Source: Providencia rettgeri (lineage in GTDB: Bacteria > Pseudomonadota > Gammaproteobacteria > Enterobacterales > Enterobacteriaceae). From it: DNA of 64,000 bases. This document shows, piece by piece, positions 25,394 to 48,638 of the stretch. The stretch lies in the NCBI RefSeq assembly GCF_013255915.1, contig NZ_CP053896.1:1488001-1552000 (forward strand), in the 5' to 3' direction. Both the position numbers and the translations under genes were made by a program. Numbering within the stretch: position 1 is the first letter of the stretch; every line of letters begins with the position of its first letter. Under the pieces are notes generated by a model. The model was not told the origin of the DNA, did no database searches, and saw nothing but the letters and a program-made list of their open reading frames with translations.

Positions 25394-26911
25394 ATGTCTC
25401 AGGAACAACAAGGTGTTGAACAAGCACCTGATTTGAATAACGAACTTAAAGCACGTAAAGAAAAATTAGCGGCACTGCGTGAAAAGGGTATTCCATTTCC
25501 AAACGATTTTCGTCGTGAAGATATTTCCGATAAAATTCATGCGCAATATGATGATAAAACCTCAGAAGAGCTTGAAGACCTAAATATTGAAGTGTCGATT
25601 GCTGGCCGTATGATGACTCGTCGTATTATGGGTAAAGCTTCGTTTGCAACGTTACAGGACGTTGGCGGACGCATTCAAATTTATGTATCGCGTGATGATT
25701 TAGCGGAAGGCATCTATAACGAACAGTTTAAAAAATGGGACTTAGGCGATATTTTAGGTGCTAAAGGCCGTTTATTTAAAACCAAAACGGGTGAGTTAAC
25801 TGTTCATTGTCATGAAGTTCGTTTATTAACCAAAGCGTTGCGTCCATTGCCTGACAAATTCCACGGTTTATCAGACCAAGAAACACGTTATCGTCAGCGT
25901 TACCTTGACTTAATTGCGAATGATGAATCTCGTCATACTTTTATTGTTCGTTCTAAGATCCTAGCTGAAGTACGTAACTTTATGGTTAGCTACGGTTTTA
26001 TGGAAGTGGAAACACCAATGATGCAGGTCATCCCTGGTGGTGCTTCTGCGCGTCCATTTGTGACTCACCATAATGCATTAGATATCGATATGTACTTACG
26101 TATCGCACCTGAATTATACCTGAAACGCTTAGTTGTAGGTGGTTTCGAACGCGTATTTGAAATCAACCGTAACTTCCGTAATGAGGGGTTATCCCCACGT
26201 CATAATCCAGAGTTCACAATGATGGAACTCTATATGGCTTATGCGGATTACCGTGACTTAATCGCATTGACGGAAGATTTGTTCCGTACACTGACACAAA
26301 AAGTGTTAGGCAATACTGTTGTTCAGTATGGGGAACAAGAGTTCGATTTCGGTAAGCCATTTACTAAAATGACGATGAAAGAAGCTATTTGCAAATATCG
26401 TCCAGAAACGAATGTTGCTGATTTGGATGATATGGATAAAGCGGTGGCGATAGCTCAGTCTATCGGTATTAAGATTGAAAAGAGCTGGGGCTTAGGCCGC
26501 GTACAGTGTGAAATCTTCGAAGAAGTTGCAGAAAGCCACTTGATTCAGCCAACATTTATTACTGAGTACCCAGCTGAAGTTTCACCGTTAGCGCGTCGTA
26601 ATGATGACAACCCATTTATTACCGACCGTTTTGAATTCTTCATTGGTGGTCGTGAAATCGGTAACGGTTTCTCGGAATTAAATGACGCAGAAGATCAAGC
26701 TGAGCGTTTTGCTGAGCAAGTACGTCAAAAAGATGAAGGTGATGACGAAGCAATGTTCTATGATGAAGACTATGTCACCGCATTAGAACATGGTTTACCG
26801 CCAACAGCAGGTTTAGGCATCGGTATTGACCGTATGGTGATGTTATTCACTAACAGCCATACTATTCGCGATGTTATTTTATTCCCCGCTTTACGTCCTA
26901 GCAAAGCTTAA
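25394..26911 (+). CDS. lysS: Lysyl-tRNA synthetase, class II
   Basis: Charges tRNA-Lys. The 505-residue protein (E. coli LysS 505) has the N-terminal OB-fold anticodon-binding domain ([18 protein letters not shown]) and the class II catalytic core with motif 1 ([11 protein letters not shown]), motif 2 ([11 protein letters not shown] followed by [14 protein letters not shown]) and motif 3 ([13 protein letters not shown]). ATG at 25394 is preceded by GAGGAA, 7 bp after prfB. A strong hairpin follows the gene, ending the conserved block before the accessory region. Confidence 0.96.
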
Positions 26912-26919
26912 ATACCATT

Positions 26920-26941
26920 ATGCCCGGTTAATTCCGGGCAT
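26920..26941 (+). terminator. Terminator of lysS
   Basis: Stem ATGCCCGG/CCGGGCAT with a 6-nt loop (26920-26927 and 26934-26941), followed by the T-rich ATATTTACATTT. Confidence 0.8.
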
Positions 26942-27757
26942 ATATTTACATTTATAAGCAATCAATATTACTCTCCTCATGTTTTATTCAAATGCTTCAT
27001 TTTAGGTTAAAGATAAAACACCATTTACTAGACGTTAAATGAGTAACATGGAATAAAATCACTGAATAGTGTTTTTTGAGTGATTACGGCTATGTGAACG
27101 CTATATTTTTATTAAAAATAAATTTGAGTTACGAATCGTATCAATTTAATATAAGTAATTCCGACAGATAACTGCTATGCTTTATTACGTAGTTGGAAAT
27201 TATGTAGCTGAAATGCCGATAAATTCGCTTTTTTATAACTGGCTGATTTTGCTTGTAATTTTTAATTGCTGTTAGTTTTTGGAATTGAATTAAGCAGGTT
27301 ACCCATATTTTGAATGATGGCGGTTATTGCCATGTCACAGGTTTAAAGTGTGTCAGCAGCTTGATAAATGAAAAGTAGGTGTGTTTATTGTTAGCCATCA
27401 TTTTATTTGTTAACAATTGTTACAGGGACAGAACTAAAATGAGAATTTACTTGAAAGGTATCTAATTGTTAGCAAGGTTTATTGAGCAACCTAATCGTTA
27501 TCTGACATAAAATAATAAAAAATTCCGGTAAAGGTGTTAATTTGTCTCTTTATAAGGACTGCTAGCGGAAATTAGCTCATAAATTTAATAGAAATGTAGC
27601 AATAAAATAATTTTAAAACTAAAGTTAAGTTAATCTAAATTTATGAGATGACTCTATTTCTACATTCGGGCTTATAGAAAATAGCTAATTTTTAGCTTAC
27701 ACTAAGTTTTTTGGACATCATTATAATAGCGAAGAAAAGTGCTGGTAAGGTAACCAT
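26942..27757. other. Long AT-rich region upstream of the lipoprotein/coiled-coil operon
   Basis: 816 bp without a credible gene, strongly AT-rich and clearly lower in GC than the flanking core genes. It contains TTGTTAACAATTGTTACAGG at about 27409-27428, which includes a TTGTTAACAA palindrome, and several TATAAT-like hexamers near 27660-27730. It is far longer than a normal promoter region. It most probably holds the promoter and regulatory sites (H-NS-type silencing is plausible) of the operon starting at 27758; no specific regulator site is identified. Confidence 0.4.
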
Positions 27758-28312
27758 ATGTTTTTAAAAAATAAATTTCATGTTGCATTTTTGCTTATAG
27801 CAGGTACAGCTCTTCTTTCAGGTTGTACATTTGGTTCAGACACATACAATACAGCAACACCTAATACCCCAAGTAAACAAACAGTCGATACAAGTACCGC
27901 TCAGCCGGTAACACAATCGACTGTTGATACCAATCCAGGTCAGGTTGATAACTCTTATCCTGAATCTCAAAAAGTTTTAAACAGCGCAATTAACCGTACA
28001 CCAGTTGCTTCTACAACTTATGGTGAAGCGGGGGCTGACCAGCAAACATTTGCTCATTTGAATACGTGTGTTAAAGAATTAAACGCGCTCAAAACACTAT
28101 CACCAAAAGATTACAATCGCTTAGTAGGTTCATTTAAAGAAGTTAGCGAAATCAACCGTCTATATCGACAAGTTGAAGGGACTGCTAGCCCTGACACAAT
28201 TGAACTATTACAAATGGCAATAGAGTCTAAAACTAAAGTGTTGTGTGCAAAAGTTCGTTATAACTCAGTATTGTCTACCGAATCAACATTGAAGAAAATT
28301 AGTGGATTATGA
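27758..28312 (+). CDS. Small lipoprotein, partner of the giant coiled-coil protein
   Basis: 184-residue predicted lipoprotein of unknown function. A signal peptide II is clear: KNKFHVAFLLIAGTALLSGC with Cys23 as lipidation site; the +2 residue is Thr, not Asp, so outer-membrane sorting is expected. A Thr/Pro/Gln/Asn-rich linker (about residues 30-70) follows, then a helical domain (residues 95-184) containing two Cys (TCVKEL and VLCAK). Its stop codon overlaps the ATG of the next gene in ATGA, so the two are translationally coupled and likely form one complex or pathway. I do not recognise a named family. Confidence 0.85.
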   Translation: MFLKNKFHVAFLLIAGTALLSGCTFGSDTYNTATPNTPSKQTVDTSTAQPVTQSTVDTNPGQVDNSYPESQKVLNSAINRTPVASTTYGEAGADQQTFAHLNTCVKELNALKTLSPKDYNRLVGSFKEVSEINRLYRQVEGTASPDTIELLQMAIESKTKVLCAKVRYNSVLSTESTLKKISGL

Positions 28313-31300
28313 GAATAAACCTTAGGCTTTGTGTGTCACTGGCACTTGTTACGACTTTTTTTAGTCATGCTCCAAAAGCAGAGCGCTTTAACAATGTAAT
28401 TGATGATTTTGATACCTACCTTCAAATGGAAAAAGAAGGCAAAGTACAAGAGCAAAAACAACAATTGCCAGTTAATACACAAAACCAAGGTTATGATATC
28501 TTTTCTTCGCTATCTACCGTTCCTGCGCCAAAAGAGAAGCAAAAATCTGCGGCAGCGAATAAAGGAACTAAAGGCAAAACTACAGGGAAAAGTAAATCTG
28601 CTGCTACATCAACGAAGAAAGCAGATGTAGCGAAAGCAGACCCTGTAGAGCCAGAAAAAACGACTTTTCCTGAAGTGTGTGCGGTGGCGACAGAAAATGG
28701 CGTAGCGCCTATTTTATTGTCGTCTTACCCTTATTTTTTTCAAAGCAACCAATGGGATCCAGCTTATCTAGCAAAAGATTTTGCAAAGTATCAATTGGTT
28801 CTTGACCCACTCGGCTTATATTCATCTAAATTTGCTAAGCCAACAGGTATTAATACCTCTGCTTATCTTGAGCAACTGGCGCAATTAATTGAACGCCAGC
28901 AATTAACACATCTATATAAGTTTGGTATTGCTCAAGGAGTAGGCCAGCTTATTGCCTATAATCATTTACTCAATGATGACCAACTCGTTTCTGAACTTAT
29001 CAATCATAATAAGAGTATTGCGCAATTAACGCAGACAATTACCGAGAAACAATTTGAGATTGATAAACTAAACGATGAAGTTCTGAAGAGTAAAGAGCAT
29101 ATAGCCCAGCTACAGGCGGTTGTAAATTCATCAGATGATCAGTCTTTAATTGACACATTAAAGGCTAAATTGGCGGATGCACAAAAAACAATTGAGCAAA
29201 AGCAAAATAGTCTTGAGCAATTAAGTCAAGAAAATCAGCAAACCCAAGAAACGATTGCCCAGCTTGAGAAACAATTAAATGAAAGTGTTGTTGAACAAGC
29301 TCAACTTAAACAGCAATTAGCAGATAAAGAACAACAATTTGCTACCGCAAATTTGAAAATTGAGCAATTAACCGCTGATATTGCAAAATTGGAGTCAGAG
29401 GCTAAAAATCAACTGCAACTTGTTGGTAATACTGATGAACAAATGAAGTCAGTGACAGCTCAACTTTTACAGCAAAAAGAGTTGTTAAAACAGAAAGAAA
29501 ATGAATTAGCTACGGCTAAAAGTGAAAAAGATGATGTCCAATCTTCTTTGGTCGCTCAGCAAGAAAAAAGTAAATCATTAGAGTCACAAAACCAGCAACT
29601 ACAAGCCCAGTTAGTCGAAAAAGAACAATTAGCGAAAAGCATTCAAACTTCTCTGGCGGAAAAAACTGAACAAGCTGAGCAAAAAGTTGCATTAGAAAAT
29701 GCCTTAAAAGTTGCTCAAGAACAGCTGAATTCATATCAAAGTACGCAAAATACGTTAGAAAAACAGTTAGCTCAAAGTGAAAAACAGCAAGCTGAGTTGC
29801 AGGCGAAGCTCAACCAGCAAGAGCACGATTACGTTACGGCACAGGCGCAACTGAAACAAGCGAACGCAGATCTACAAAAGCTCCAAGGGGAGATGGAAAA
29901 ACAGACCGCCTTGATGAGCCAAGCCAGCGACCAACAAGTTAAAGCGTTGACCGCGGATTTAAACAAACAACTCGCTTTGTTGAAGCAAAAAGAAGACGGG
30001 TTGAAGAAAGCTGAAACGGAGAGCCAAACCACCCGTGAGGCGCTAGCCAAACAGCAAGCGGACGCAAAAGCGTTAGCGGAGAAAAACCAGCAGCTTGCTG
30101 CCGAATTGCAACAAAAAGCGCAACAAGCGGAAAAAATTCAAGCGTCCTTAGCCGAGCAGACGGCGAAGGCTGCCGAGAAGGTGGCGTTAGAAGCCGAACT
30201 GGCTGAGGCGAAAAAACAGTTAGCCGAGCACCAAACGGCGCAAAATGCGTTGTCTAAACAGTTTGCGAACAGTGAAAAACAGCAAGCCGAGTTGCAGGCG
30301 AAGCTCAACCAGCAAGAGCAAAATTACGTTACGGCACAGGCGCAACTGAAACAAGCGAACGCAGATCTACAAAAACTTCAAGGGGAGATGGAAAAACAGA
30401 CCACCTTGATGAGCCAAGCCAGCGACCAACAAGTTAAAGCGTTGACGGCGGATTTAAACAAACAACTCGCTTTGCTGAAGCAAAAAGAAGACGGGTTGAA
30501 GAAAGCTGAAACGGAGAGCCAAACCACCCGTGAGGCGCTCGCCAAACAGCAAGCGGAGGCAAAAGCCTTAGCCGAGAAAAACCAGCAGCTTGCTGCCGAA
30601 TTGCAACAAAAAGCACAACAAGCGGAAAAAATTCAAGCGTCCTTAGCCGAGCAGACGGCGAAGGCTGCCGAGAAGGTGGCGTTAGAAGCCGAACTGGCTG
30701 AGGCGAAAAAACAGTTAGCCGAGCACCAAACGGCGCAAAATGCGTTGTCCAAACAGTTTGCGAACAGTGATAAACAGCAAGCCGAGTTGCAGGCAAAACT
30801 CCGCCAGCAAGAGCACGATTACGTTACGGCACAGGCGCAACTGAAACAAGCGAACGCAGATCTACAAAAGCTCCAAGGGGAGATGGAAAAACAGACCGCC
30901 TTGATGAGCCAAGCCAGCGACCAACAAGTTAAAGCGCTGACCGCGGATTTAAACAAACAACTCGCTTTGTTGAAGCAAAAAGAAGACGGGTTGAAGAAAG
31001 CTGAAACGGAGAGCCAAACCACCCGTGAGGCGCTCGCCAAACAGCAAGTGGATGCAAAAGCCTTAGCGGAGAAAAACCAGCAGCTTGTTGCCGAATTGCA
31101 ACAAAAAGCGCAACAAGCGGAAAAAATTCAAGCGTCCTTAGCCGAGCAGACGGCGAAGGCTGCCGATAAGGTGGCGTTAGAAGCCGAACTGGCTGAGGCG
31201 AAAAAACAGTTAACCGAGCACCAAACGGCGCAAAATGCGTTGTCCAAACAGTTTGCGAACAGTGAAAAACAGCAAGCCGAGTTGCAGGCAAAACTCCGCC

Positions 31301-33819
31301 AGCAAGAGCACGATTACGTTACGGCACAGGCGCAACTGAAACAAGCGAACGCAGATCTACAAAAGCTCCAAGGGGAGATGGAAAAACAGACCGCCTTGAT
31401 GAGCCAAGCCAGCGACCAACAAGTTAAAGCGCTGACGGCGGATTTAAACAAACAACTCGCTTTGTTGAAGCAAAAAGAAGACGGGTTGAAGAAAGCTGAA
31501 ACGGAGAGCCAAACCACCCGTGAGGCGCTCGCCAAACAGCAAGCGGACGCAAAAGCGTTAGCCGAGAAAAACCAGCAGCTTGCTGCCGAATTGCAACAAA
31601 AAGCACAACAAGCGGAAAAAATTCAAGCGTCCTTAGCCGAGCAGACGGCGAAGGCTGCCGAGAAGGTGGCGTTAGAAGCCGAACTGGCTGAGGCGAAAAA
31701 ACAGTTAGCCGAGCACCAAACGGCGCAAAATGCGTTGTCCAAACAGTTTGCGAACAGTGAAAAACAGCAAGCCGAGTTGCAGGCGAAACTCCGCCAACAA
31801 GAGCAAAATTACGTTACGGCACAGGCGCAACTGAAACAAGCGAACGCAGATCTACAAAAGCTCCAAGGGGAGATGGAAAAACAGACCGCCTTGATGAGCC
31901 AAGCCAGCGACCAACAAGTTAAAGCACTGACGGCGGATTTAAACAAACAACTCGCTTTGTTGAAGCAAAAAGAAGACGGGTTGAAGAAAGCTGAAACGGA
32001 GAGCCAAACCACCCGTGAGGCGCTAGCCAAACAGCAAGCGGACGCAAAAGCCTTAGCGGAGAAAAACCAGCAGCTTGCTGCCGAATTGCAACAAAAAGCG
32101 CAACAAGCGGAAAAAATTCAAGCGTCCTTAGCCGAGCAGACGGCGAAGGCTGCCGAGAAGGTGGCGTTAGAAGCCGAACTGGCTGAGGCGAAAAAACAGT
32201 TAGCCGAGCACCAAACGGCGCAAAATGCGTTGTCCAAACAGTTTGCGAACAGTGAAAAACAGCAAGCCGAGTTGCAGGCGAAGCTCAACCAGCAAGAGCA
32301 AAATTACGTTACGGCACAGGCGCAACTGAAACAAGCGAACACGGATTTGCAGAAGCTGAAGAATGAAGTTGAAACAAAAACAGCTTTAATGAATCAAGCC
32401 AGCGACCAACAGATTAAAGCGCTGACGGCAGATTTAAACAAACAACTCGCTTTGCTGAAGCAAAAAGAAGACGGGTTGAAGAAAGCTGAAACGGAAAGTA
32501 AAGTAACTCGTGAGGCGCTCGCCAAACAGCAAGCAGATGCAAAAGCGTTAGCGGAGAAAAACCAGCAGCTTGTTACGCAACTGAAACAGAAAGCGCAGCA
32601 AGCAGATAAGATCCAAGCATCTTTAGCAGAGCAAACTGCCAAATTAGCACAAAAAATTACGTTAGAGTCTGAATTAGCAACAGCAAAAAAACAGTTGGCT
32701 GAGCAGCAAGCAGCACAGAATGTTTTATCAAAACAATATGTTGAGAGCCAAAAGCAACAGCAACAATTGCAAGAAAACTTAAAACAAAATGAACAAAATT
32801 TTGTTAATGCTCAAAAACAATTGGAACAGGCTAATGCAGAACTGCTGAAATTACAAAAAGATGTTGAAAAACAAACAGCGCTAGTAGGTCAAGCAAGTGA
32901 CAAGCAAGTTAAAGCGTTAACTGCGGACTTAAATAAACAAGTTACATTATTGAAAGAAAAAGAAAGCGCTATTGCCAAGTTAGAATCTGAGAAAAAATCA
33001 ATTAGTGACGCTCTTGCTGCCCAAGAAAGTGAGAAGAAAAAACTTGACCAGCAAAACCAGCAATTTACTAAGCAGACTAAGGCTCAAGAAGACAAAATCA
33101 GCAAACTTGAAAGTGATATTGCGGCTAAAACAAAGAAACAGTCTGAAATTGAGCAAAAACTGACAGACACGAATAAACTTCTTGGTGATTTAAAAGCGAA
33201 CTCTCAAAAAGAGTTGGCATTAGCACAAGAAAAATTGAAAAAACTACAAACGGAATTGGATTCAAGTAAATCCATTTCGAGTGATGAAGCTTTAAAATCA
33301 CAAATTATGGCGTTAAATCGACAGATAACTCAATTACAAAATGAAAATGATGCATTAAAAGCAAGAGGTGGTTCGAAATCGAGTACTGGTCTGGCTGGGC
33401 GAATTCCTCCTAGCAAAGATGCAAAAGTGATTGCCGCAGAAAATGCGAAGAAAAACCAAAAAATTATTGAGCAAATTACCGCTCAAAAATACAGTAAGCT
33501 CGATAGCAATACTTACTATAAAATCATTCAAGTTGGCTCACCGATAAAAGACGTGAAAAATAAAGACGTGACTTTTATTATGAGAGAGCAATTAACTGAC
33601 GGTAAGGTTACGGTGTTGTATACCGATCAAAACCCTGTCACATTACCTTATAATCAGTTACCTGCACCATTAAACTCCTTTGTCGAACGAGCAGGGGAAG
33701 GGGGAATGGTTAAAGTCTATATTAAACCTGAAGGTGGGTATGGCGTTGAAGGCATACCAGGTGAGGTACCACCAAACTCCATGTCAATTATTGATTTAAA
33801 AATAATCAAAGCGAAATAG
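28309..33819 (+). CDS. Giant exported coiled-coil repeat protein with C-terminal FKBP-like domain
   Basis: 1,836 residues. An N-terminal hydrophobic segment (LRLCVSLALVTTFFSHA) looks like a signal peptide or anchor. A Lys/Ala/Thr-rich low-complexity stretch (residues 80-118) and a globular domain of unknown type (about 120-235, with PILLSSYPYFFQ) follow. Residues about 240-1690 form a continuous Gln/Lys/Ala/Glu/Leu-rich coiled coil with seven or more 165-residue repeats. The last ~110 residues resemble a shortened FKBP fold (TYYKIIQVG, PVTLPYNQLPAP, GGMVKVYIKPEGGYG, PPNSMSIIDLKII). Start ATG overlaps the lipoprotein stop. Function unknown; an envelope-tethering or scaffolding role is inference. 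The PPIase active-site residues are not evident, so the FKBP-like domain may bind rather than isomerise. Confidence 0.88.
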   Translation: MRINLRLCVSLALVTTFFSHAPKAERFNNVIDDFDTYLQMEKEGKVQEQKQQLPVNTQNQGYDIFSSLSTVPAPKEKQKSAAANKGTKGKTTGKSKSAATSTKKADVAKADPVEPEKTTFPEVCAVATENGVAPILLSSYPYFFQSNQWDPAYLAKDFAKYQLVLDPLGLYSSKFAKPTGINTSAYLEQLAQLIERQQLTHLYKFGIAQGVGQLIAYNHLLNDDQLVSELINHNKSIAQLTQTITEKQFEIDKLNDEVLKSKEHIAQLQAVVNSSDDQSLIDTLKAKLADAQKTIEQKQNSLEQLSQENQQTQETIAQLEKQLNESVVEQAQLKQQLADKEQQFATANLKIEQLTADIAKLESEAKNQLQLVGNTDEQMKSVTAQLLQQKELLKQKENELATAKSEKDDVQSSLVAQQEKSKSLESQNQQLQAQLVEKEQLAKSIQTSLAEKTEQAEQKVALENALKVAQEQLNSYQSTQNTLEKQLAQSEKQQAELQAKLNQQEHDYVTAQAQLKQANADLQKLQGEMEKQTALMSQASDQQVKALTADLNKQLALLKQKEDGLKKAETESQTTREALAKQQADAKALAEKNQQLAAELQQKAQQAEKIQASLAEQTAKAAEKVALEAELAEAKKQLAEHQTAQNALSKQFANSEKQQAELQAKLNQQEQNYVTAQAQLKQANADLQKLQGEMEKQTTLMSQASDQQVKALTADLNKQLALLKQKEDGLKKAETESQTTREALAKQQAEAKALAEKNQQLAAELQQKAQQAEKIQASLAEQTAKAAEKVALEAELAEAKKQLAEHQTAQNALSKQFANSDKQQAELQAKLRQQEHDYVTAQAQLKQANADLQKLQGEMEKQTALMSQASDQQVKALTADLNKQLALLKQKEDGLKKAETESQTTREALAKQQVDAKALAEKNQQLVAELQQKAQQAEKIQASLAEQTAKAADKVALEAELAEAKKQLTEHQTAQNALSKQFANSEKQQAELQAKLRQQEHDYVTAQAQLKQANADLQKLQGEMEKQTALMSQASDQQVKALTADLNKQLALLKQKEDGLKKAETESQTTREALAKQQADAKALAEKNQQLAAELQQKAQQAEKIQASLAEQTAKAAEKVALEAELAEAKKQLAEHQTAQNALSKQFANSEKQQAELQAKLRQQEQNYVTAQAQLKQANADLQKLQGEMEKQTALMSQASDQQVKALTADLNKQLALLKQKEDGLKKAETESQTTREALAKQQADAKALAEKNQQLAAELQQKAQQAEKIQASLAEQTAKAAEKVALEAELAEAKKQLAEHQTAQNALSKQFANSEKQQAELQAKLNQQEQNYVTAQAQLKQANTDLQKLKNEVETKTALMNQASDQQIKALTADLNKQLALLKQKEDGLKKAETESKVTREALAKQQADAKALAEKNQQLVTQLKQKAQQADKIQASLAEQTAKLAQKITLESELATAKKQLAEQQAAQNVLSKQYVESQKQQQQLQENLKQNEQNFVNAQKQLEQANAELLKLQKDVEKQTALVGQASDKQVKALTADLNKQVTLLKEKESAIAKLESEKKSISDALAAQESEKKKLDQQNQQFTKQTKAQEDKISKLESDIAAKTKKQSEIEQKLTDTNKLLGDLKANSQKELALAQEKLKKLQTELDSSKSISSDEALKSQIMALNRQITQLQNENDALKARGGSKSSTGLAGRIPPSKDAKVIAAENAKKNQKIIEQITAQKYSKLDSNTYYKIIQVGSPIKDVKNKDVTFIMREQLTDGKVTVLYTDQNPVTLPYNQLPAPLNSFVERAGEGGMVKVYIKPEGGYGVEGIPGEVPPNSMSIIDLKIIKAK
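29776..32340 (+). repeat. Near-identical 495-bp in-frame tandem repeats in the coiled-coil gene
   Basis: Six units recur in exact 495-bp register, marked by YVTAQAQLKQAN with the preceding codon at 29827, 30322, 30817, 31312, 31807 and 32302; a diverged seventh (NFVNAQKQLEQAN) starts at 32797, still in register. From about 29776 to 32340 the copies differ at only scattered bases, while copies before and after have drifted. Known principle: this pattern points to homogenisation by recombination or recent amplification. It makes the locus prone to unit gain or loss by multiples of 165 residues, and hard for short-read assembly. Confidence 0.95.
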
Positions 33820-33844
33820 CATAGCTTTTATTTAAGGTTATCTT

Positions 33845-33882
33845 AAAGGTAATTTGTCACTGAAAGGCAAATTACCTTTTTT
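33845..33882 (+). terminator. Terminator of the lipoprotein/coiled-coil operon
   Basis: Perfect 12-bp stem AAAGGTAATTTG/CAAATTACCTTT (33845-33856 and 33868-33879) with an 11-nt loop, running into six T residues. Confidence 0.92.
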
Positions 33883-33900
33883 GTGATGTATCAATCTGAA

Positions 33901-33969
33901 AGAAGTATAAGAAGTATAAGAAGTATAAGAAGTATAAGAAGTATAAGAAGTATAAGAAGTATAAGAAGT
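33901..33969. repeat. 9-bp tandem repeat (VNTR)
   Basis: Seven perfect copies of AGAAGTATA (33901-33963) plus six bases of an eighth. It lies between the terminator of the coiled-coil operon and the 3' end of the convergent AraC-type gene, outside any ORF. A repeat of this kind is expected to vary in copy number by slippage. Position downstream of both genes makes an effect on transcription initiation unlikely. Confidence 0.95.
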
Positions 33970-34077
33970 GAATGTGAATATTTAAAGGAAGGATTTGATG
34001 TTTGCCTTTCTGCCAGATTATAGTGAAGTTTAAACTTCTATAACTGACAGGGCATGAGTTAGAGTCTTACTGAGCGG

Positions 34078-34896
34078 TTAAGCTGCTATTCTTGACCGAC
34101 TCGGTGTGTAGCCAAACCGTTTTCGATAAGTTTGGGTGAAGTAAGATTGACTTGAAAAGCCTGCTTCCATAGAAACCTCTACAATACTCATTGTAGTATT
34201 AATTAACAACTGGTGTGCATACATAATACGTTTTTCACTGATCCATGCGCGTGGTGACGTTGCATAAACGGTATTGAACAGTTCTTTAAATGTTGTTAAT
34301 CCCATACCAAAAGTACGTGCGAACTCACTTAATTTCCACTCTTTAAGATAATTATTTTCCATAAACATTTGTAGACGTTCTATTTGGCGACTACTTAGCT
34401 GTCTAAAATTAGATAGCAATAAAGCACCTTGTTCACTGTAGCTTAGTAATAACAGTAATTCACTAACTCGGAGTGAGAAAATGACGTCAGGGTATTCGTT
34501 ATTAACAAATGTATTTAAGCTTGATTTGATTTCTTCAATGAGAGGGGATGAATTAAATTTAATGATATCACAGGGTAAGCCTTCATTGCGGTCTATTTCG
34601 CTTAACTCAGTGCCATGATTGGCGATGAAACTACGCAAAAAGTTATCATCCAAGGATATCCAAAGTAATTTGCAACTTGTTGTTTCAGTGAGCTGTAATG
34701 AGTAAGCTCCCTGCTTGTGATATAAAATATCGCCTTCATTTAAAGATTGTGAGTTAGCTGGGGTTTCTAGTAACACAGAGCCTTGTTCTATGATTAAAAG
34801 CCCTTTAGTTTCTAAGTCAATAATGTTATGGGCCGCGTTACTATCAATGTTTATCTGTTTAATGAAGTGTCGATTTGGTGAGTTTATTGCTTGCAT
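34078..34896 (-). CDS. AraC-family regulator, ExsA/LcrF-like
   Basis: 272-residue transcription factor with an N-terminal cupin-like ligand/dimer domain and a C-terminal double helix-turn-helix (about residues 170-268). The C-terminal half (SPRAWISEKRIMYAHQLL, MSIVEVSMEAGFSSQSYFTQ, YRKRFGYTPSRSR) is strikingly like the type III secretion master regulators ExsA, LcrF and VirF. No type III secretion genes, chaperones or anti-activators lie in this window, so it is an orphan here. It converges on the coiled-coil operon and has a 730-bp AT-rich upstream region. Targets unknown. Confidence 0.85.
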   Translation of the reverse strand: MQAINSPNRHFIKQINIDSNAAHNIIDLETKGLLIIEQGSVLLETPANSQSLNEGDILYHKQGAYSLQLTETTSCKLLWISLDDNFLRSFIANHGTELSEIDRNEGLPCDIIKFNSSPLIEEIKSSLNTFVNNEYPDVIFSLRVSELLLLLSYSEQGALLLSNFRQLSSRQIERLQMFMENNYLKEWKLSEFARTFGMGLTTFKELFNTVYATSPRAWISEKRIMYAHQLLINTTMSIVEVSMEAGFSSQSYFTQTYRKRFGYTPSRSRIAA

Positions 34897-35628
34897 GACT
34901 ATACCTTTTTAATCGTATTTAAATATAAATTCAAAATAAAATATTCAACTATTCCTATCTGGTGATATAAAGCATGGATGTTATTAGTATGATTGAAATT
35001 ATATAAATCGATTAATTTTGTGTCACATTATAATTCTAAATATAAATAAATGTTTCTAAATATACTTTTTTCGAGTTGTTTTTGTGAATTGCTCGGTATT
35101 TTTTGTGTCATTGGTGGGGTAATTTAATTATTATACTTATAATTTTAATTAGTTTGGATTTTTAATCTGAATTGATAAAATTAGTCGTATGTTAATATGT
35201 TATCGTTTTTTACACCTAAACCGTGTTTTTTTTCTACTTTCTTCTTACTTATCATTTTTAGCATAGTAATATGAATTTTAGCTATGCTAATGATGATTCT
35301 AGATTTCGGCAAAACCATCATTTATTAATTTTATTAATGTAATTAATGGTTATTAATCTAAGTTATTTATTTTTTCAATCGATATGATTGATTTTGTTTG
35401 TTAAAATGTGAGGGGATTGCTGTTTATTTGTGACTTTAGTCTCATTTTTTAATTGATAGGTTTCTGTAATTGCTTTAATAGGTATTTTAAATATATATTT
35501 TTATAAATAGTTCCTTAGAGTTACTACTTGTTGTTCGCCATTTTTCAACATCTTTGTGCTTTATTATTTCTCCTCATGTTGTACTTTGCTTTAAATAGAG
35601 GGCTAAGCTTGAGCTATAGGCTCACTAA
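34897..35628. other. AT-rich intergenic region upstream of the AraC-type gene
   Basis: 732 bp of very AT-rich DNA with many T runs and no credible ORF, RNA or repeat. It contains the promoter of the minus-strand regulator gene and the 3' flank of ygbA. Composition fits H-NS-silenced or horizontally acquired DNA; this is inference. Confidence 0.4.
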
Positions 35629-35991
35629 TTATGGCTCTTGTTTCTGAGTTGCTCGCTTGCTTACTTTAGCTGGTAAATCAGGGACTGGTTTACGATCATC
35701 AAGTAAATGACGTATAGCGAGAATTGGGTGATGGATTAACATCTTCGGGCCAGCCCAGCGCATAACTAGCTTCATCTGCTCTCTCATTTTGGGTTGGTAA
35801 CAATGGATTGGACATTGTTTACATGCTGGTTTTTCTTCTCCATATCGGCATTTTTCTAATCTATTAACGGCATAGGAAAATAGTTTTTGATAAAAATCAG
35901 GTGATTCTGCTGGTGCTGGATAGGCTTTCTCATAGATTTTTATCATTTTTTCAATCGTTTTAATTTCACGGTGTATGCGTTTGCCAACCAT
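35629..35991 (-). CDS. ygbA: YgbA family protein (nitrosative-stress-linked)
   Basis: 120-residue protein of the YgbA_NO family ('nitrous oxide-stimulated promoter'). In enterics ygbA is repressed by NsrR and has been tied to growth under nitrosative stress; its biochemistry is unresolved. Conserved features are RIHREIKTIEKMI, the four-cysteine block KCRYGEEKPACKQCPIHCYQP (two CxxC-like pairs that could bind an Fe-S cluster or metal), and MRWAGPKMLIHHPILAIRHLLDD. Start ATG at 35991 aligns with E. coli; 14 further upstream codons are open. I could not identify a confident NsrR site upstream. Confidence 0.88.
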   Translation of the reverse strand: MVGKRIHREIKTIEKMIKIYEKAYPAPAESPDFYQKLFSYAVNRLEKCRYGEEKPACKQCPIHCYQPKMREQMKLVMRWAGPKMLIHHPILAIRHLLDDRKPVPDLPAKVSKRATQKQEP

Positions 35992-36113
35992 AGAAAATTC
36001 TCTATAAAAACAAAACATATATTTAATATACAATTTATGGCTGATTTATGATAATTTTTTTGTGTTTTTATTGATGGGACTCAATAAAATGGTGAGTTCT
36101 TCGACGTAATAAA

Positions 36114-36140
36114 AAGAGGGTAATAAAAAAATACCCTCTT
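36114..36140 (-). terminator. Terminator of the YdcH-like gene
   Basis: Perfect 9-bp stem AAGAGGGTA/TACCCTCTT with a 9-nt loop; on the minus strand it is followed by TTTTTATT (complement of 36106-36113). It lies 128 bp past the stop of the DUF465 gene. Confidence 0.85.
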
Positions 36141-36267
36141 ATATTAGTGTGAAACAACGCTAGCTAACATTAAATGATCGATAGAATATCATTATCTTTT
36201 AGGATGTTAGCCCAGTTTTTGAATTTCATTATTTGAGAAAAACAACTAATACTATTATCGTAATAAC

Positions 36268-36480
36268 CTATTGACTCGAGAGCATTATTTTTTGCATTTC
36301 ATCTTTAAGATGTAATTTTTCTTTTTTTAGCTTAGCGACATGCTCATTGTAACCAGCACCAGAAGGCCCTTCTAATTTACTGATTTCTTTGTCGAGTTGA
36401 TGATGTTTTTCATAAAGAGTTTGAAAACGGGGATGTGTAGAGATTAATTTTGAAACTAAATCTTGATCTGCTGATAACAT
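36268..36480 (-). CDS. YdcH family protein (DUF465)
   Basis: 70-residue helical protein of the DUF465/YdcH family: an N-terminal segment with FQTLYEKHHQLDKEISKLEG and a C-terminal VAKLKKEKLHLKDEMQKI helix, the hallmark of this family. Function is unknown; members are small, often stress- or stationary-phase-associated coiled coils. ATG at 36480 is preceded by GAGGTAG. It is transcribed alone, divergent from eco. Confidence 0.88.
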   Translation of the reverse strand: MLSADQDLVSKLISTHPRFQTLYEKHHQLDKEISKLEGPSGAGYNEHVAKLKKEKLHLKDEMQKIMLSSQ

Positions 36481-36747
36481 ACTACCTCCTCAGAATATAT
36501 TAAGCCTCAGTTTCAGTATAAACAGTGCATGCATTTTGTACATCCAAATAGCTTGTAATTTACATAATTTTTATTAGTTTTATGATCCTTCTACTAGAAT
36601 TAAGTAGTATTACATGGCTTTTACCTGAGTTATCTATATTTTTGTAATTAAGAATCATCTATAGTGATAATTACGGTGTAAATGACTTAACATGGATAAA
36701 AGACTGGTTTTAAAAATTGGTTTTGTGTTCTTAAATAGGAATAAATA

Positions 36748-37224
36748 ATGAAAAAAGCGATTTTATCTGTAATGGCGGCGGCACTAATTTCATCTTGTGC
36801 AGTAGCAACGGAAGATTTGGAAAAGATCGCGCCATACCCAAAAGCAGAATCGGGTATGACTCGTCATGTGATTGAATTAACCAAGCAACAAAATGAAAAT
36901 GACTTTATGATTGAGTTAGTTATTGGAAAAACGATCAAAGCAGATTGTAACCGCCAATGGTTTATGGGTGATCTAGACAGAAAGACGTTGGAAGGCTGGG
37001 GCTATGATTATTATAAACTCGACGAAGTAAAAGGCCCTGCATCTACTATGATGGGATGCTCTGAGCCTGCAAAAGACCGTTTTGTGACGACTCAATTAGG
37101 CGATGATGCATTTGTGCGTTATAACAGTAAATTACCGATTGTGGTTTATGCTCCGAAAGATATGCAAGTAAAATATCGTATCTGGTCTACAGACGATAAA
37201 TTAATTGATTCAGTTACAAAATAA
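36748..37224 (+). CDS. eco: Ecotin, periplasmic serine protease inhibitor
   Basis: Dimeric inhibitor of trypsin-fold serine proteases, including neutrophil elastase; it protects enteric bacteria from host proteases. The 158-residue precursor has the reactive loop STMMGC with P1 Met101, the Cys67-Cys104 disulfide, TLEGWGYDYYKLDEV, the secondary site RYNSKLPIVVY and the VKYRIW strand. The signal peptide (MKKAILSVMAAALISSCAVA) contains ISSC, which resembles a lipobox, so lipidation at Cys17 is possible although E. coli ecotin is soluble. Its terminator hairpin is duplicated around a repeat element downstream. Confidence 0.96.
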   Translation: MKKAILSVMAAALISSCAVATEDLEKIAPYPKAESGMTRHVIELTKQQNENDFMIELVIGKTIKADCNRQWFMGDLDRKTLEGWGYDYYKLDEVKGPASTMMGCSEPAKDRFVTTQLGDDAFVRYNSKLPIVVYAPKDMQVKYRIWSTDDKLIDSVTK

Positions 37225-40462: not shown

Positions 40463-41917
40463 TTAAATAACGAATAGATCCATATATTCATTGACGGGCA
40501 TTTTTTCTAGCATTGGCTTATCGAGAGAGGCTTTTAAAATTCGAATTTGTTGAGCCTCTGGGAATTGCCTTGCTAAATTAATTCTAAATTTATTTAATAA
40601 CAATGGCATCCCTTCTTTACGGCGGCGTTTATGGCCAACAGGATATTCGATAACAACTTCATCAAGCACTTGCCCATCCTTCAATGTAATGGTTAACCCA
40701 TTGCTAATCGAACGTTTTTCAGGGTCATGATAGTCTCGGGTAAACTGTGCATCTTCAGTGCAATGCATTTTTGCACGTAATGCATCAATACGCTCATCTT
40801 TGGCAATATTATCTTCATAATCAGCAGCCGTTAAACGACCAAAAATTAATGGGATAGCGACCATATATTGAATGCAATGGTCACGATCTGCTGGGTTATG
40901 TAATGGGCCTTTTTTATCAATGATACGAATACAAGCTTCATGAGTGCGTATGGCAATAGACTCAATATCTTGAGCCGTTTTTCCTGATTTTTCGAGGGTT
41001 TGGTGGAGTTGTAACGCTGCCTCTACTGCTGTTTGGGAATGAAACTCAGCAGGGAAAGAAATCTTAAACAACACATTTTCCATAACATAGGAGCCATAAG
41101 GGCGTTGAAAACACAGGGGTTGTCCATTAAATAAAACATCGTAGAAGCCCCAGGTTTTAGCCGTTAGCGCCGTTGGGTAGCCCATTTCCCCTTTTTGAGC
41201 CATTAAAGCCAGCCGTACAGCACGGGAGGTGGCATCACCTGCCGCCCATGACTTGCGAGACCCTGTATTGGGGCTGTGGCGGTAGGTACGTAAGCTGTGG
41301 CCATCAATCCACGCTTGGGAAACAGCATTGAGAATTTGTTCTCTTTCCAGCCCCAATAGATGAGAAACAACCGCAGTTGATGCCACTTTGACTAAAATAA
41401 CATGGTCGAGCCCGACTTGGTTAAAGGCATTTTCTAGTGCGATGCAGCCTTGAATTTCATGCGCTTTAATTAATGCAGTCAAAACATCTCTAATAACTAG
41501 CGGGGGCTTGCCTTTCGCAATGTTTTCACGAGAAAGCCAATCCGCAGTGGCTAAAATACCACCAAGGTTATCCGACGGGTGGCCCCATTCGGCAGCCAGC
41601 CAAGTGTCATTAAAGTCGAGCCAACGGCACATTGTGCCAAGATTAAATGCGCCTTGCACTGGGTCTAATTGAAATTGGGTGCCTGGGATTTTTGTGCCAT
41701 TTGGCACAATCGTACCTGGAACGATAGGCCCTAATAATTTTTTACATGCAGGGTATTCAAGGGATTCCATACCGCAACCAAGGGTATCGAGCAGGCAATG
41801 ATAAGCCGTATCATAGGCGAGGTCAGAAATAATTGGGTAATCCATTACATAATCAACAATATCGCTGATCACTTTATCAAATTCAATTTGTTGCGAACGC
41901 ACGGTTTGTGTTGTCAT
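40463..41917 (-). CDS. prpD: 2-methylcitrate dehydratase PrpD
   Basis: Cofactor-independent dehydratase that converts 2-methylcitrate to 2-methyl-cis-aconitate in the propionate-degrading methylcitrate cycle. The 484-residue protein (E. coli 483) belongs to the MmgE/PrpD family, with [69 protein letters not shown] and [15 protein letters not shown]. It is the last gene of prpBCD; no prpE follows, since the convergent galM homologue begins directly beyond. Confidence 0.97.
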
Positions 41918-41928
41918 TAGGTTACCTT

Positions 41929-43092
41929 TTAACGCTGTTCTATAGGAGTAAATAATTGATTTTCAGGACCAATATAGTTGGCTGAAGGACGAATAATTTT
42001 ATTATCTTGTCGTTGCTCAATAATATGTGCTGACCAGCCAGCGGTACGTGCCATAACAAATAATGGGGTAAACATGGCGGTGGGAATGCCCATAAGGTGA
42101 TAAGCCACAGCAGAAAACCAATCTAAATTTGGAAACATGTTTTTTTCACGTTTCATTACGGATTCAATTCGATCCGCAACGGTATAAAGATGTCGATTTA
42201 GGCTCTGTTCTGATAACTGTAAAGCGACAGACTTGATAATAGGGTGGCGGGGGTCTGCGAGGGTATAAACGGGGTGGCCAAACCCAATGATAACCTCACT
42301 ATTTTTAACGCGCGCTGTAATATCTTGTTCTGCTTCCTCCATTGAGGCATAACGTTGCTGAATTTCTAATGAAACTTCATTTGCCCCCCCGTGTTTTGGG
42401 CCACGCAAAGCGGCAATTGCACCTGTCATCGCAGAGTAAAAATCCGTGCCTGTTCCCGCAATAACCCTTGCTGCGAATGTCGATGCGTTAAATTCATGTT
42501 CTGCGTATAAAATTGCCGCAATATGCATAAATTTTTCCCATTGAGCAGGGGGCTTTTTACCGTGTAATAGATGCAAGAAATGCGCACCAATTGAATCATC
42601 ATCTGTTTGGGTTTCAATACGTCTTCCATGGTGGCTAAAGTGATACCAATACAACAACATCGAACCCAGTGACGCTAATAAGCGATCTGCTATATCCCTA
42701 GCACCGGAAAAAGGGTGAGATTCTTTTTCGGGTAACACGCAGCCCATCATTGATACGCCTGTGCGCATGACGTCCATTGGGTGCGCGTTCGCGGGTATGG
42801 ATTCTAACGTTTGTTTAACACTTGCCGGTAACCCTCGAAGAGATTGCAACTTTTCTTTATATGCAACGAGTTCGGTTGCTGTCGGCAGCCTTTCATGGAT
42901 GAGCAAATGCGCGATTTCTTCAAATTCACATTGTGTGGCTAAGTCGTGAATGTCAAACCCGCGATAATGCAGGTCATTACCATTACGCCCAACGGTACAA
43001 AGTGCGGTATTTCCGGCAGTAATACCTGAAAGTGCAACGGATTTTTTAGGTTTAAATTGAGGTGTTTCAGTACGACTAAGTTGTTCATTCAT
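41929..43092 (-). CDS. prpC: 2-methylcitrate synthase PrpC
   Basis: Condenses propionyl-CoA with oxaloacetate to 2-methylcitrate. The 387-residue citrate-synthase-fold protein carries [43 protein letters not shown] and [14 protein letters not shown] with the catalytic His and Asp residues, and the C-terminal [23 protein letters not shown] is doubled (43095 and 43092); 43092 has the better spacing to AAGGA. It lies 11 bp upstream of prpD and 61 bp downstream of prpB. Confidence 0.96.
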
Positions 43093-43153
43093 CATTTATT
43101 CCTTGTAGGGGACAGAGGCGATGCAACTTTTAGTAATGATAAGTGCTTAAAAA

Positions 43154-44041
43154 TTAGGATTTATTCTTGGAAAATAACGCATCCAGTTTTTGTTCATAAT
43201 CGTAATAATGAATACTTTGATACAGCTCTTCTCGAGTCTGCATAAGTGGAATGACACTTTTTTGAGTGCCCTCTTTGCGTAATGTTGTATAAACCTGTTC
43301 AGCGGCTTTATTCATGGCTCGAAACGCAGACAGTGGATATAGCGCAATGGCAATGTCAACACTGCGTAGTTCATCAAGAGTAAATAAAGGGGTTTGACCA
43401 AATTCAGTTAAATTGGCCAGTACGGGAGCAGAGGTATTACTTGTAAACTGTTGATACATAGAAAGCTCAGTAATTGCCTCTGGAAAAAGCATGTCCGCAC
43501 CGGCTTCTAAGTAGGCTTGTGCACGTTCCAGTGCGGCATCAATGCCTTCGACCGCTAATGCATCGGTTCGAGCCATAATGACAAAGCTGTCATCGGTTCG
43601 TGCATCAACAGCCGCCTTGATGCGGTCGACCATCTCTTGTGTCGAAACAATTTCTTTATTAGGGCGATGGCCACAACGTTTTGCACCCACTTGGTCTTCA
43701 ATATGCAACCCTGCCGCACCGGCTTTACAAAAGGATTTCACCGTGCGGGCGACATTAAAAGCAGAAGGGCCAAAGCCAATATCGGCATCGACCATAAGTG
43801 GTAAGTCACATACATCAGTAATGCGTCGAATATCAATTAAAACATCATCTAACGTTGAAATACCTAAGTCCGGCATGCCCAGTGACCCTGCAGCGACGCC
43901 ACCTCCAGATAAGTAAATAGCTTTATAGCCAGCTTGTTTTGCAAGGAGCGCATGGTTGGCATTGATAGTTCCAACGAGCTGCAATGGAGATTCTTGCTTG
44001 ATAGCCTCACGAAATTTTTGTCCTGCACTAAATGACGACAT
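43154..44041 (-). CDS. prpB: 2-methylisocitrate lyase PrpB
   Basis: Cleaves 2-methylisocitrate to pyruvate and succinate, the last step of the methylcitrate cycle. The 295-residue PEP-mutase/isocitrate-lyase superfamily protein has Cys123 in the catalytic loop [12 protein letters not shown], the metal ligands in VDADIGFG and GLHIEDQ, and [13 protein letters not shown] at 44041 follows GAGGCT. It is the first gene of the operon, with a sigma-54 promoter about 60 bp upstream. Confidence 0.97.
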
Positions 44042-44098
44042 AATAGCCTCATATGATGTTAATTAATTGTAATGAAATTGAGATAACTATAGTCATAT

Positions 44099-44114
44099 AG
44101 CAATTGACGTGCCA
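44099..44114 (-). promoter_or_regulatory. Sigma-54 promoter of prpBCD
   Basis: On the minus strand the site reads TGGCACGTCAATTGCT, matching the -24/-12 consensus TGGCACG-N4-TTGCW with the correct 10-nt spacing between GG and GC. The predicted transcription start is about 44088, giving a leader of some 46 nt before prpB. Established knowledge: prp operons of enterics are sigma-54 dependent and activated by PrpR. Confidence 0.93.
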
Positions 44115-44219
44115 ATCTGGCTCTAAATTACATGGGTATGCAAATGTGTTTAAAATCAAACTGATATTGTTTTTTTTGATTTGTGACGGGAAAAACAATT
44201 TTAAAATAATCGGTTGGTG

Positions 44220-44254
44220 TGTTTCGTTGAAACAAGATATTGTCAATTGAAACA
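44220..44254. promoter_or_regulatory. Candidate PrpR binding sites
   Basis: A perfect dyad TGTTTC-GTT-GAAACA (44220-44234) and an imperfect copy TGTCAATTGAAACA (44241-44254), with a further GAAACA at 44260-44265. They lie about 120-150 bp upstream of the sigma-54 promoter, a proper distance for an enhancer, and just upstream of prpR, which would allow autoregulation. Assignment to PrpR is by position and symmetry. Confidence 0.65.
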
Positions 44255-44283
44255 TAAATGAAACATGGTAAGAAGGTATGGCG

Positions 44284-47678: not shown

Positions 47679-48638
47679 TTATTTCTTTTTATTGACGGTT
47701 GAAGGTGACAGTTGTGCTTCAATGGGTGAATGCTTTGTATTACGTACAATGCGTTGCTCCCAAAGCTCCCCTAATTTGAAATCCCATGATAGCGGTGATA
47801 TTTCTGTTCTACCTGCATTTGGGGCAAATGTAAGTTCGCTGAAATACAAGGTATTTTCATCAGACATCAAAAAATCCGCACGGCAATAATCAAAAGGTGT
47901 GACGAGTATTTCCGCTAACCGTAACATTTCTTTGAATAGTGGTGGCTCAGATACGGGTTCCAGCATGTTTGGATAACCAAAAGTCACGGGTTGTAACTGC
48001 CAGTTGATATCATAAATATTAATAAATTCATTGCCAAATTCGTCTGAGTAATCAATCTCTGCATAGGCAGGCTTACCAGAGAAGCAATGGATCCTGCATG
48101 TTTCTGGTACTAACTTCCGGTTTTTATTAGCGAATAAATCAATATATTCTTCACACATAATTTGTGCGGGAATAGTTTTATAATGACGTTCTCGAGTAAT
48201 ATAGTAAAGGTTTTTAGTTAAATGAAAATCTAATTTATTTTTAGCTTTTAGCCAGTCAAAGTGTGCTTTATCGCGACAAATAATGCTACTACCACTGTCG
48301 TGATTGCATTTTAAAACGAAACGCTCTGGCAGTTTGTTTAGATCAATTTCATCGACACTTTTATAAGTGGCGATGATAGGTACTAAATATTCATTTCCTA
48401 TTGTTCGTGAGATATATTCCCTTACCGCGAGTTTATCTGCAAATTGTGAATATAATGGATTTTTATCTCGCAACATTCTGAAATTTACTTTCTCATTAAA
48501 ACTTTTTGGGGCTTTAAAATCAGGGCGGTAATTGAGTTTTTTAGTAAATTTATTAGTGAGATATGTTTTGTCACTCACTATGAGTGTACGTAATTTTTTT
48601 ATAAAATACTCTGCTTTTTTCATGCGAGCACCAACCAT
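47679..48638 (-). CDS. TupA-like ATP-grasp protein (surface polysaccharide modification)
   Basis: 319-residue protein of the ATPgrasp_TupA family, which adds amino acids or similar groups to cell-surface glycans (named after teichuronopeptide synthesis in Bacillus). Family marks are visible: APKSFNEKVNFRMLRDKNPLY, DKLAVREYI, the nucleotide-binding FVLKCNHDSGSSI, MCEEYIDLF, and the metal/ATP segment FDYCRADFLMSDENTLYFSELTFAPNAG. ATG at 48638 is used; ATG at 48623 is an alternative. No glycosyltransferase or polysaccharide genes lie nearby, so it is an orphan, and its low GC suggests acquisition. Confidence 0.82.
   Translation of the reverse strand: MVGARMKKAEYFIKKLRTLIVSDKTYLTNKFTKKLNYRPDFKAPKSFNEKVNFRMLRDKNPLYSQFADKLAVREYISRTIGNEYLVPIIATYKSVDEIDLNKLPERFVLKCNHDSGSSIICRDKAHFDWLKAKNKLDFHLTKNLYYITRERHYKTIPAQIMCEEYIDLFANKNRKLVPETCRIHCFSGKPAYAEIDYSDEFGNEFINIYDINWQLQPVTFGYPNMLEPVSEPPLFKEMLRLAEILVTPFDYCRADFLMSDENTLYFSELTFAPNAGRTEISPLSWDFKLGELWEQRIVRNTKHSPIEAQLSPSTVNKKK

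What the first reader, a model, noticed from the sequence alone, without database searches (positions are those of the whole stretch)
27758..33819. Two-gene envelope system: lipoprotein plus 1,836-residue coiled-coil protein with FKBP-like tail
The genes overlap as ATGA, are preceded by an 816-bp AT-rich leader and end at a strong terminator, so they form one unit. The large protein has an export signal, an unassigned N-domain, about 1,450 residues of unbroken coiled coil and a degenerate FKBP-like C-terminal domain. A single helix of that length would span about 200 nm, far more than the periplasm, so it must lie along the envelope, fold back or leave the cell. I know no named system with this layout.
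Basis: partly seen in the sequence, partly recalled or inferred. Interest (0 to 1): 0.78.

Follow-up and report, generated by a model that had tools for sequence, protein, structure and literature searches.

The report
Lipoprotein plus giant coiled-coil pseudo-FKBP
Two neighbouring Providencia genes make a lipoprotein and an exported, rope-like protein that ends in a prolyl-isomerase fold without its active site; the pair belongs to a wider enterobacterial gene family that often sits near genes for surface fibres and whose function is unknown.

Summary
In Providencia a 184-aa lipoprotein gene and a 1,836-aa exported coiled-coil gene overlap as ATGA, in 23 of 23 congeneric genomes. The conserved promoter-like block is proximal, so most of the AT-rich gap is probably not a leader.

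The C-terminal domain descends from FkpA (99.1%). FKBP pocket residues Y26, F36 and D37 are kept in 0 of 60 family members, and all 60 have Pro at position 56, unlike 5 of 5 ordinary FKBPs.

The lipoprotein represents a family with no Pfam or NCBIfam match above cut-off and three invariant cysteines (37 of 37). Of 40 sampled loci, 29 hold an FKBP coiled-coil partner (0 of 40 controls); chaperone-usher or invasin genes lie near 14 (3 controls), LuxR genes near 11 (0). Some plasmid relatives lie inside fimbrial operons.

Best reading: an outer-membrane lipoprotein tethers an elongated pseudo-FkpA that binds, and does not isomerise, surface-bound proteins. Anatomy is shown; location and function are inferred.

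The parts
27640..27757 (+). conserved promoter-like block: inverted repeat CTATTTCTA..TAGAAAATAG at 27654-27684, TATAAT at 27722-27727
   Evidence: near-invariant in the alignment of 23 Providencia loci; the inverted repeat occurs once in the genome at up to 3 mismatches. Promoter function inferred.
27758..28312 (+). lipoprotein, 184 aa: lipobox C23, variable linker (about 27-95), helical domain with C104 and C163 (about 96-184)
   Evidence: AF2 helices 93-114, 116-139, 145-182, block pLDDT 65-76, whole model 57.6; domain dN/dS 0.00-0.08 in 5 comparisons
28309..33819 (+). exported coiled-coil pseudo-FKBP, 1,836 aa
28378..28434 (+). residues 24-42, conserved short motif after the signal-like segment (FNNVIDDFDTYLQ), candidate docking site for the lipoprotein
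   Evidence: conserved in 22 aligned Providencia sequences; similar short motifs in distant partners judged by eye; binding inferred
28750..29013 (+). residues 148-235, conserved helical N-domain without known relatives
   Evidence: no FKBP_N match; AF2 pLDDT 38
28984..33378 (+). coiled-coil stalk, residues 226-1690
29761..32633 (+). tandem array, 495-bp (165-aa) unit, 5.8 copies
   Evidence: lag-165 residue identity 0.95
33421..33816 (+). residues 1705-1836, end of an FkpA-like linker helix and pseudo-FKBP domain
33845..33879 (+). terminator-like hairpin, 14 pairs plus T run
34078..34896 (-). convergent AraC-type regulator gene with ExsA_N domain; conserved neighbour and candidate regulator, not shown to act here
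   Evidence: present next to the pair in 21 of 23 Providencia loci, the other 2 ending at contig ends, and in L202 and L223

Best explanation
SHOWN: the two genes are one conserved unit and the Providencia form of a wider two-gene family. One gene encodes a lipoprotein with a two-cysteine helical domain (helices predicted). The other encodes an exported protein with a short N-terminal motif, a variable linker, a coiled-coil stalk of very variable length, and a C-terminal domain that descends from FkpA and has lost the prolyl-isomerase pocket but is still under purifying selection. INFERRED: the lipoprotein lies in the outer membrane (no Asp after the lipidated Cys), and its helical domain holds the N-terminal motif of the big protein. 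The big protein then reaches through or along the periplasm as a paired coil with pseudo-FKBP heads at the far end. The heads bind or hold proteins bound for the cell surface (fimbrial subunits, adhesins) and do not isomerise them. In Providencia the stalk was lengthened by tandem duplication and is kept uniform by recombination, so reach can change without touching the two ends.
For: Pair with -4 overlap in 23 of 23 Providencia loci. FKBP partner in 29 of 40 lipoprotein loci against 0 of 40 control stretches; directly downstream in 26, 16 of these with -4. Y26, F36, D37 kept in 0 of 60, Pro56 in 60 of 60. dN/dS 0.064 and 0.024 for the FKBP domain in the two of four comparisons where dS was not saturated. 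No Asp after the lipidated Cys in 37 of 37 (the +2 rule is recalled). Chaperone-usher or invasin genes near 14 of 40 against 3 of 40, p 0.0026; LuxR near 11 against 0. Fimbrial operons contain the FKBP gene in E. albertii and E. coli plasmids; the E. albertii one also has the lipoprotein. Arrays 0.85-0.99 identical within, 0.59-0.94 between species.
Against: No location, binding or function was tested. The Providencia locus has no fimbrial gene beside it. 26 of 40 loci had no chaperone-usher or invasin hit. The context queries came from loci of this same family. Some lipoproteins have no FKBP partner (L138, L140, L144, L145, L147, L152) and some FKBP genes no lipoprotein seen beside them (L094; L266, L268). 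A stalk of about 215 nm is far longer than a periplasmic bridge needs. The Providencia form lacks the FKBP_N dimer domain, so pairing of its heads is not assured. The motif resemblance was judged by eye.
Confidence: 0.42

Rival explanations
1. Surface fibre or adhesin: the lipoprotein is displayed outside and holds a long coiled-coil fibre whose FKBP-fold head binds a ligand. It shares loci with fimbriae because both are surface fibres under common regulation.
For: Stalk length varies by tandem repeats and far exceeds the periplasm; loci shared with fimbriae, invasins and LuxR genes.
Against: Pfam finds no translocator domain in the big protein, and no usher-like partner is in the unit. The head is among the more conserved parts, where an exposed adhesin head is often variable (general knowledge).
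Confidence: 0.25
2. Structural periplasmic scaffold: an outer-membrane-tethered filament that lies along the envelope and affects stiffness, spacing or shape, with the head as an end cap or wall-binding module.
For: Coiled coil of about 215 nm would have to lie along the envelope; its length varies widely between species while both ends are conserved.
Against: Distant partners are as short as 301-435 aa, too short for a filament of that kind; association with fimbriae is not explained.
Confidence: 0.18
3. An active FKBP isomerase with a long tether.
For: Clear FkpA homology; relatives are annotated as FKBP-type isomerases.
Against: Pocket residues lost in 60 of 60; the same genome keeps two ordinary FKBPs with Y26, F36, D37 and W59 (L052, L053).
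Confidence: 0.04

Closest known systems
FkpA / Mip / FKBP22 (FKBP_N + FKBP_C isomerase-chaperones)
   Same: C-terminal domain and the end of the linker helix are homologous; distant partners also carry FKBP_N; exported
   Different: Isomerase pocket lost, stalk of hundreds to over a thousand residues, partner lipoprotein; the Providencia form has no detectable FKBP_N
Chaperone-usher fimbrial operons
   Same: Some relatives lie inside or beside such operons (11 of 40 loci have a chaperone hit)
   Different: The pair is neither usher, chaperone nor pilin; the Providencia locus has no fimbrial neighbour
Tandem-repeat coiled-coil surface proteins such as streptococcal M protein (recalled, not tested)
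   Same: Elongated helical protein whose length varies by tandem repeats
   Different: Known from Gram-positive surfaces; no sequence comparison was made; here a separate lipoprotein and an FKBP head
Inverse autotransporters (intimin/invasin)
   Same: In other genomes the same lipoprotein family lies before such a gene (L147; IAT hits in L213, L214, L216)
   Different: The big protein here has no autotransporter domain

Membership tests
FkpA/Mip-type FKBP | FKBP_C fold homology | tested here: met
   1q6h E 1.5e-8; hhalign 99.1%, E 9.8e-19; Pfam 19.2 bits, under the cut-off of 21.1, and 23.5 bits, over it,
FkpA/Mip-type FKBP | isomerase pocket (Y26, F36, D37, W59, F99; FKBP12 numbering recalled) | tested here: not met
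   M, T, V, L/M, I in 19 of 19 Providencia rows
FkpA/Mip-type FKBP | FKBP_N dimerisation domain | tested here: not met
   no Pfam FKBP_N at E up to 1, hhalign 0.3%; met in relatives L088, L090, L091, L094
FkpA/Mip-type FKBP | isomerase activity | not testable with these tools
   needs purified protein
Outer-membrane lipoprotein | lipobox and no Asp after the Cys | tested here: met
   37 of 37 rows of A8; the rule is recalled, lipidation and sorting not tested
Coiled coil | heptad periodicity above chance | tested here: met
   z 15.6 against 100 shuffles; spectral peak at 3.51
Chaperone-usher accessory gene | gene within a fimbrial operon | tested here: not met
   not in the Providencia locus; met in E. 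albertii and E. coli plasmid relatives
Autotransporter | translocator domain | tested here: not met
   only FKBP_C found by Pfam at E up to 1
SMC proteins | NCBIfam SMC score above cut-off | tested here: not met
   82.1 bits against 567; coiled-coil similarity only

The most novel reading that the evidence does not exclude
An undescribed, widespread enterobacterial envelope device: an outer-membrane lipoprotein holds one end of a coiled-coil tether whose other end carries a catalytically dead FkpA head, dedicated to assembling or holding surface appendages and adhesins. Its reach is tuned by tandem-repeat recombination, from roughly 15 nm in the shortest relatives to over 200 nm in Providencia (lengths estimated from residue counts).
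Probability: 0.33. Interest if true: 0.82.

Novelty: new variant of a known kind. Interest (0 to 1): 0.62.

Why it matters
A conserved pseudo-enzyme and a lipoprotein family without a Pfam or NCBIfam match above cut-off recur across many enterobacterial genera and on conjugative plasmids, often near fimbriae, yet are annotated as isomerase and hypothetical protein. If the pair serves appendage biogenesis, it adds a component to well-studied chaperone-usher systems. The Providencia form raises a physical question: where does a helix of about 215 nm fit in an envelope some 25 nm deep (recalled width)?

Tried and rejected
N-domain as an FKBP_N moved to the front: suspected by eye (YxxGxxxGxxI), but hhalign gave 0.3%; rejected. 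AF2 of the N-domain (pLDDT 38) is not used. Foldseek with the lipoprotein model gave nothing at E up to 0.001. PDB sequence searches with A1 and A2 gave only weak hits (best E 0.036 and 0.36). Rfam: nothing in 26800-36800 at gathering or 26900-27800 at E up to 0.1. Phages: no match to the big protein. The G354 hit looked by its own sequence like an unrelated lipoprotein and was dropped. Weak hits (E near 1e-4) may rest on the signal peptide, so 137 of 372 genomes and 67 of 154 genera are upper figures; the domain-only profile A5 gave 17 of 394 genomes and 13 of 115 genera in an order-wide sample. My regular expression for the inverted repeat was too narrow to find even the known site, so that call says nothing about other copies; one search does.

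Literature: ten searches of the held library. I saw listings only, plus passages of PMC4792353 and PMC10652904; the FKBPs there are a 26.9-kDa protein and FklB, not this one. None of the listings described the pair. Most subscription papers are not held, so this does not show that it is unpublished.

Rows dropped: L042 (stops in the stretch) and L036 from the C-terminal alignment; L032 and L033 have no C-terminus (contig ends); L043 from A1. The dN/dS test used five relatives that I named (four for the FKBP domain). The neighbourhood test used 40 loci from 38 genomes (32 genera) that I picked by eye from its list for low E-value and spread over genera. I had not seen their surroundings, except that L184 is the Moellerella contig already met as L110. 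Four of the 40 stretches were 8.5-9.4 kb and one 10.4 kb at contig ends, the rest 16 kb. The 40 control stretches (fixed positions in 14 of those genomes, chosen before fetching) were all used.
Full report
What is there. The window lies in a Providencia genome: 23 of 23 congeneric genomes hold the N-terminal part of the big protein and 0 of 37 others in that search, and 11 of 12 named contigs found with the lipoprotein are Providencia, the twelfth Moellerella. The pair is at 27758-28312 and 28309-33819 with an ATGA overlap, after lysS and before a convergent AraC-type gene. In all 23 Providencia loci the genes overlap by 4 bp; lysS was found upstream in 22 and the AraC gene downstream in 21, the other two ending at contig ends. 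In 16 of 23 loci the big frame reads from start to FKBP tail, 1,058 to 1,903 aa. Two loci end at contig ends, L034 has unknown bases, and L027, L036, L042 and L043 have an early stop or frame change, which may be real or a sequencing error in repeats.

Stalk. TRF finds a 495-bp unit, 5.8 copies, 95% match. Of the 22 other loci, 12 have a 495-bp unit (2.0-6.1 copies), 5 a 306-bp unit (1.9-6.9), L034 a 267-bp unit, and L032, L033 (contig ends), L037 and L042 none at that threshold. Units of one array are 0.85-0.99 identical to each other, but 0.59-0.94 to units of other species in the eight arrays compared; the comparison is ungapped, so distant values may be low. This points to homogenisation after species split. 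Units of 165 and 102 residues equal 7n+4, which keeps heptads with one stutter per unit; the 89-residue unit is 7n+5. The measured period 3.51 fits 165/47. A simple heptad model scores 15.6 sd above shuffles, with Leu commonest at a and d. Residues 226-1690 would span about 215 nm as one straight helix.

C-terminal domain. It matches FkpA (1q6h) with the end of its linker helix and a profile of 13 partners and 3 FkpA at 99.1%. Pocket residues (FKBP12 numbering, recalled) were read in 60 family members: 28 from the new loci, 13 found earlier, 19 Providencia. Y26, F36 and D37 are kept in 0, W59 in 1, F99 in 1, Y82 in 55; position 56 is Pro in 60. Five ordinary FKBPs (three from other genomes, two from the own genome) keep Y26, F36, D37, I56, W59, Y82 and F99 in 5 of 5; F46 and V55 each differ in one. 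The domain is still selected: dN/dS 0.064 and 0.024 in two of four comparisons; in the other two dS was saturated.

Lipoprotein. C23, C104 and C163 are invariant in 37 of 37 aligned members and the residue after C23 is Asp in none, which by the recalled +2 rule predicts the outer membrane. AF2 gives three helices with block pLDDT 65-76, whole model 57.6, and no solved fold matches at E up to 0.001. Pfam and NCBIfam give no family above cut-off for it or for five distant relatives. In five comparisons dN/dS is 0.00-0.08 for the domain and 0.15-0.55 for the linker.

The wider family. Profile searches reach distant pairs. L088, L089, L090 and L091 have the -4 overlap, as do L092, L139, L141, L143, L146 and L149; the gap is +2 in L142, -1 in L151 and +123 in L150. 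In the relatives scanned (L088, L090, L091, L094) the stalk precedes FKBP_N, with FKBP_C after it in L088, L090 and L091. Weak hits to the BamJ family also appear in the FKBP part of L090 and L091 (28-29 bits, cut-off 100). L191, L202 and L223, from two further unnamed genera, have the Providencia-like N-motif and no FKBP_N stretch in the match; L202 also has lysS and the AraC gene, and L223 the AraC gene, so that layout appears older than Providencia. Not all lipoproteins have this partner. L147 lies before an inverse autotransporter gene, and L148 before a long gene with a similar start that I did not scan. L144 lies before type IVb pilus genes. L138, L140, L145 and L152 have no FKBP partner in view. 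L050 heads a coiled coil without FKBP, while the FKBP gene of that genome, L094, has no lipoprotein beside it. L137 heads a coiled coil with unknown bases and was not counted.

Neighbourhood test. Of 40 loci, 29 hold an FKBP partner and 0 of 40 control stretches do; it is directly downstream in 26, 16 of them at -4, and in three it is a split frame (L191, L199) or lies about 1 kb upstream (L210). Loci with a hit, against controls: chaperone 11 and 2, usher 10 and 3, fimbrial subunit 11 and 2, LuxR 11 and 0, invasin 3 and 0; one-sided Fisher p 0.0065, 0.033, 0.0065, 0.0002 and 0.12. Any chaperone-usher or invasin gene: 14 and 3, p 0.0026. No pilin, CofB or secretin hit was reported. The queries came from loci of this family, which favours their relatives, and the loci are not independent of descent. 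Named plasmids agree in part. The pair follows an HTH regulator between two fimbrial operons in Serratia entomophila. The FKBP gene lies inside a chaperone-usher operon in E. albertii, with the lipoprotein two genes on, and inside such an operon in E. coli without a detected lipoprotein. A Salmonella copy is broken. The S. marcescens pair lies beside mrf-type fimbriae. Against this, the Klebsiella example lies beside speE and speD with no fimbriae and no lipoprotein in the stretch held, and the Providencia locus has no fimbrial neighbour.

Promoter. Alignment of 160 bp upstream of 23 loci shows a near-invariant block with an inverted repeat at 27654-27684 and TATAAT at 27722-27727. The inverted repeat occurs once in the genome at up to three mismatches. 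Of seven species compared, the two most distant have 0.54-0.57 identity over 600 bp of the gap while the lipoprotein gene keeps 0.68-0.72; nearer ones have 0.66-0.89. So most of the gap is probably upstream DNA. Whether the AraC protein acts on the repeat is unknown.

How it likely works. Shown: unit, family, lost pocket, selection, repeat evolution, and association with surface-fibre genes in relatives. Inferred: outer-membrane tether by docking of the N-terminal motif (judged by eye), a paired coil, and heads that bind client proteins. A periplasmic tether is preferred to a surface fibre because no translocator was found and the head is conserved; the choice is not secure, and a structural scaffold remains possible.

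Known or new. The parts are known kinds (FKBP fold, coiled coil, lipoprotein). I found no description of the pair in ten searches of the held library (Tried and rejected). It fails the pocket and FKBP_N tests, so I do not file it as an FkpA; it is an FkpA-derived pseudo-enzyme with a partner.

Noticed in passing
window 33900-33969: Nine-base tandem repeat AAGAAGTAT, 7.8 copies, 100% match, between the terminator and the AraC gene; L027 has a 9-bp array of 7.3 copies after its gene. Possible variable tract.
   Followed up: no
window 34078-34896: AraC-type gene with an ExsA_N domain (E 1e-25), convergent with the pair and kept beside it in 21 of 23 Providencia loci and in L202 and L223; candidate regulator.
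   Followed up: partly
L147 3882-4262 and 4602-10001; L213, L214, L216: The same lipoprotein family lies before or near inverse-autotransporter (invasin-like) genes, so it may serve several kinds of surface protein.
   Followed up: partly
L144 3880-4236: A family lipoprotein lies before TcpA-like and CofB-like type IVb pilus genes.
   Followed up: no
L027, L036, L042, L043: Interrupted copies of the big gene in some Providencia genomes; may be loss of the protein or sequencing errors in repeats.
   Followed up: no
L050 8602-10830 and L094 4928-8950: In one genome outside the family-level group the lipoprotein heads a coiled coil without FKBP, while a 1,340-aa FKBP coiled coil lies alone on another contig.
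   Followed up: partly
window 40463-45903: Genes with MmgE/PrpD, citrate synthase and PEP-mutase domains beside a PrpR-like activator: a propionate (prp) type cluster (cluster name recalled).
   Followed up: no
window 47679-48638: Gene with a TupA-like ATP-grasp domain after an MFS transporter.
   Followed up: no
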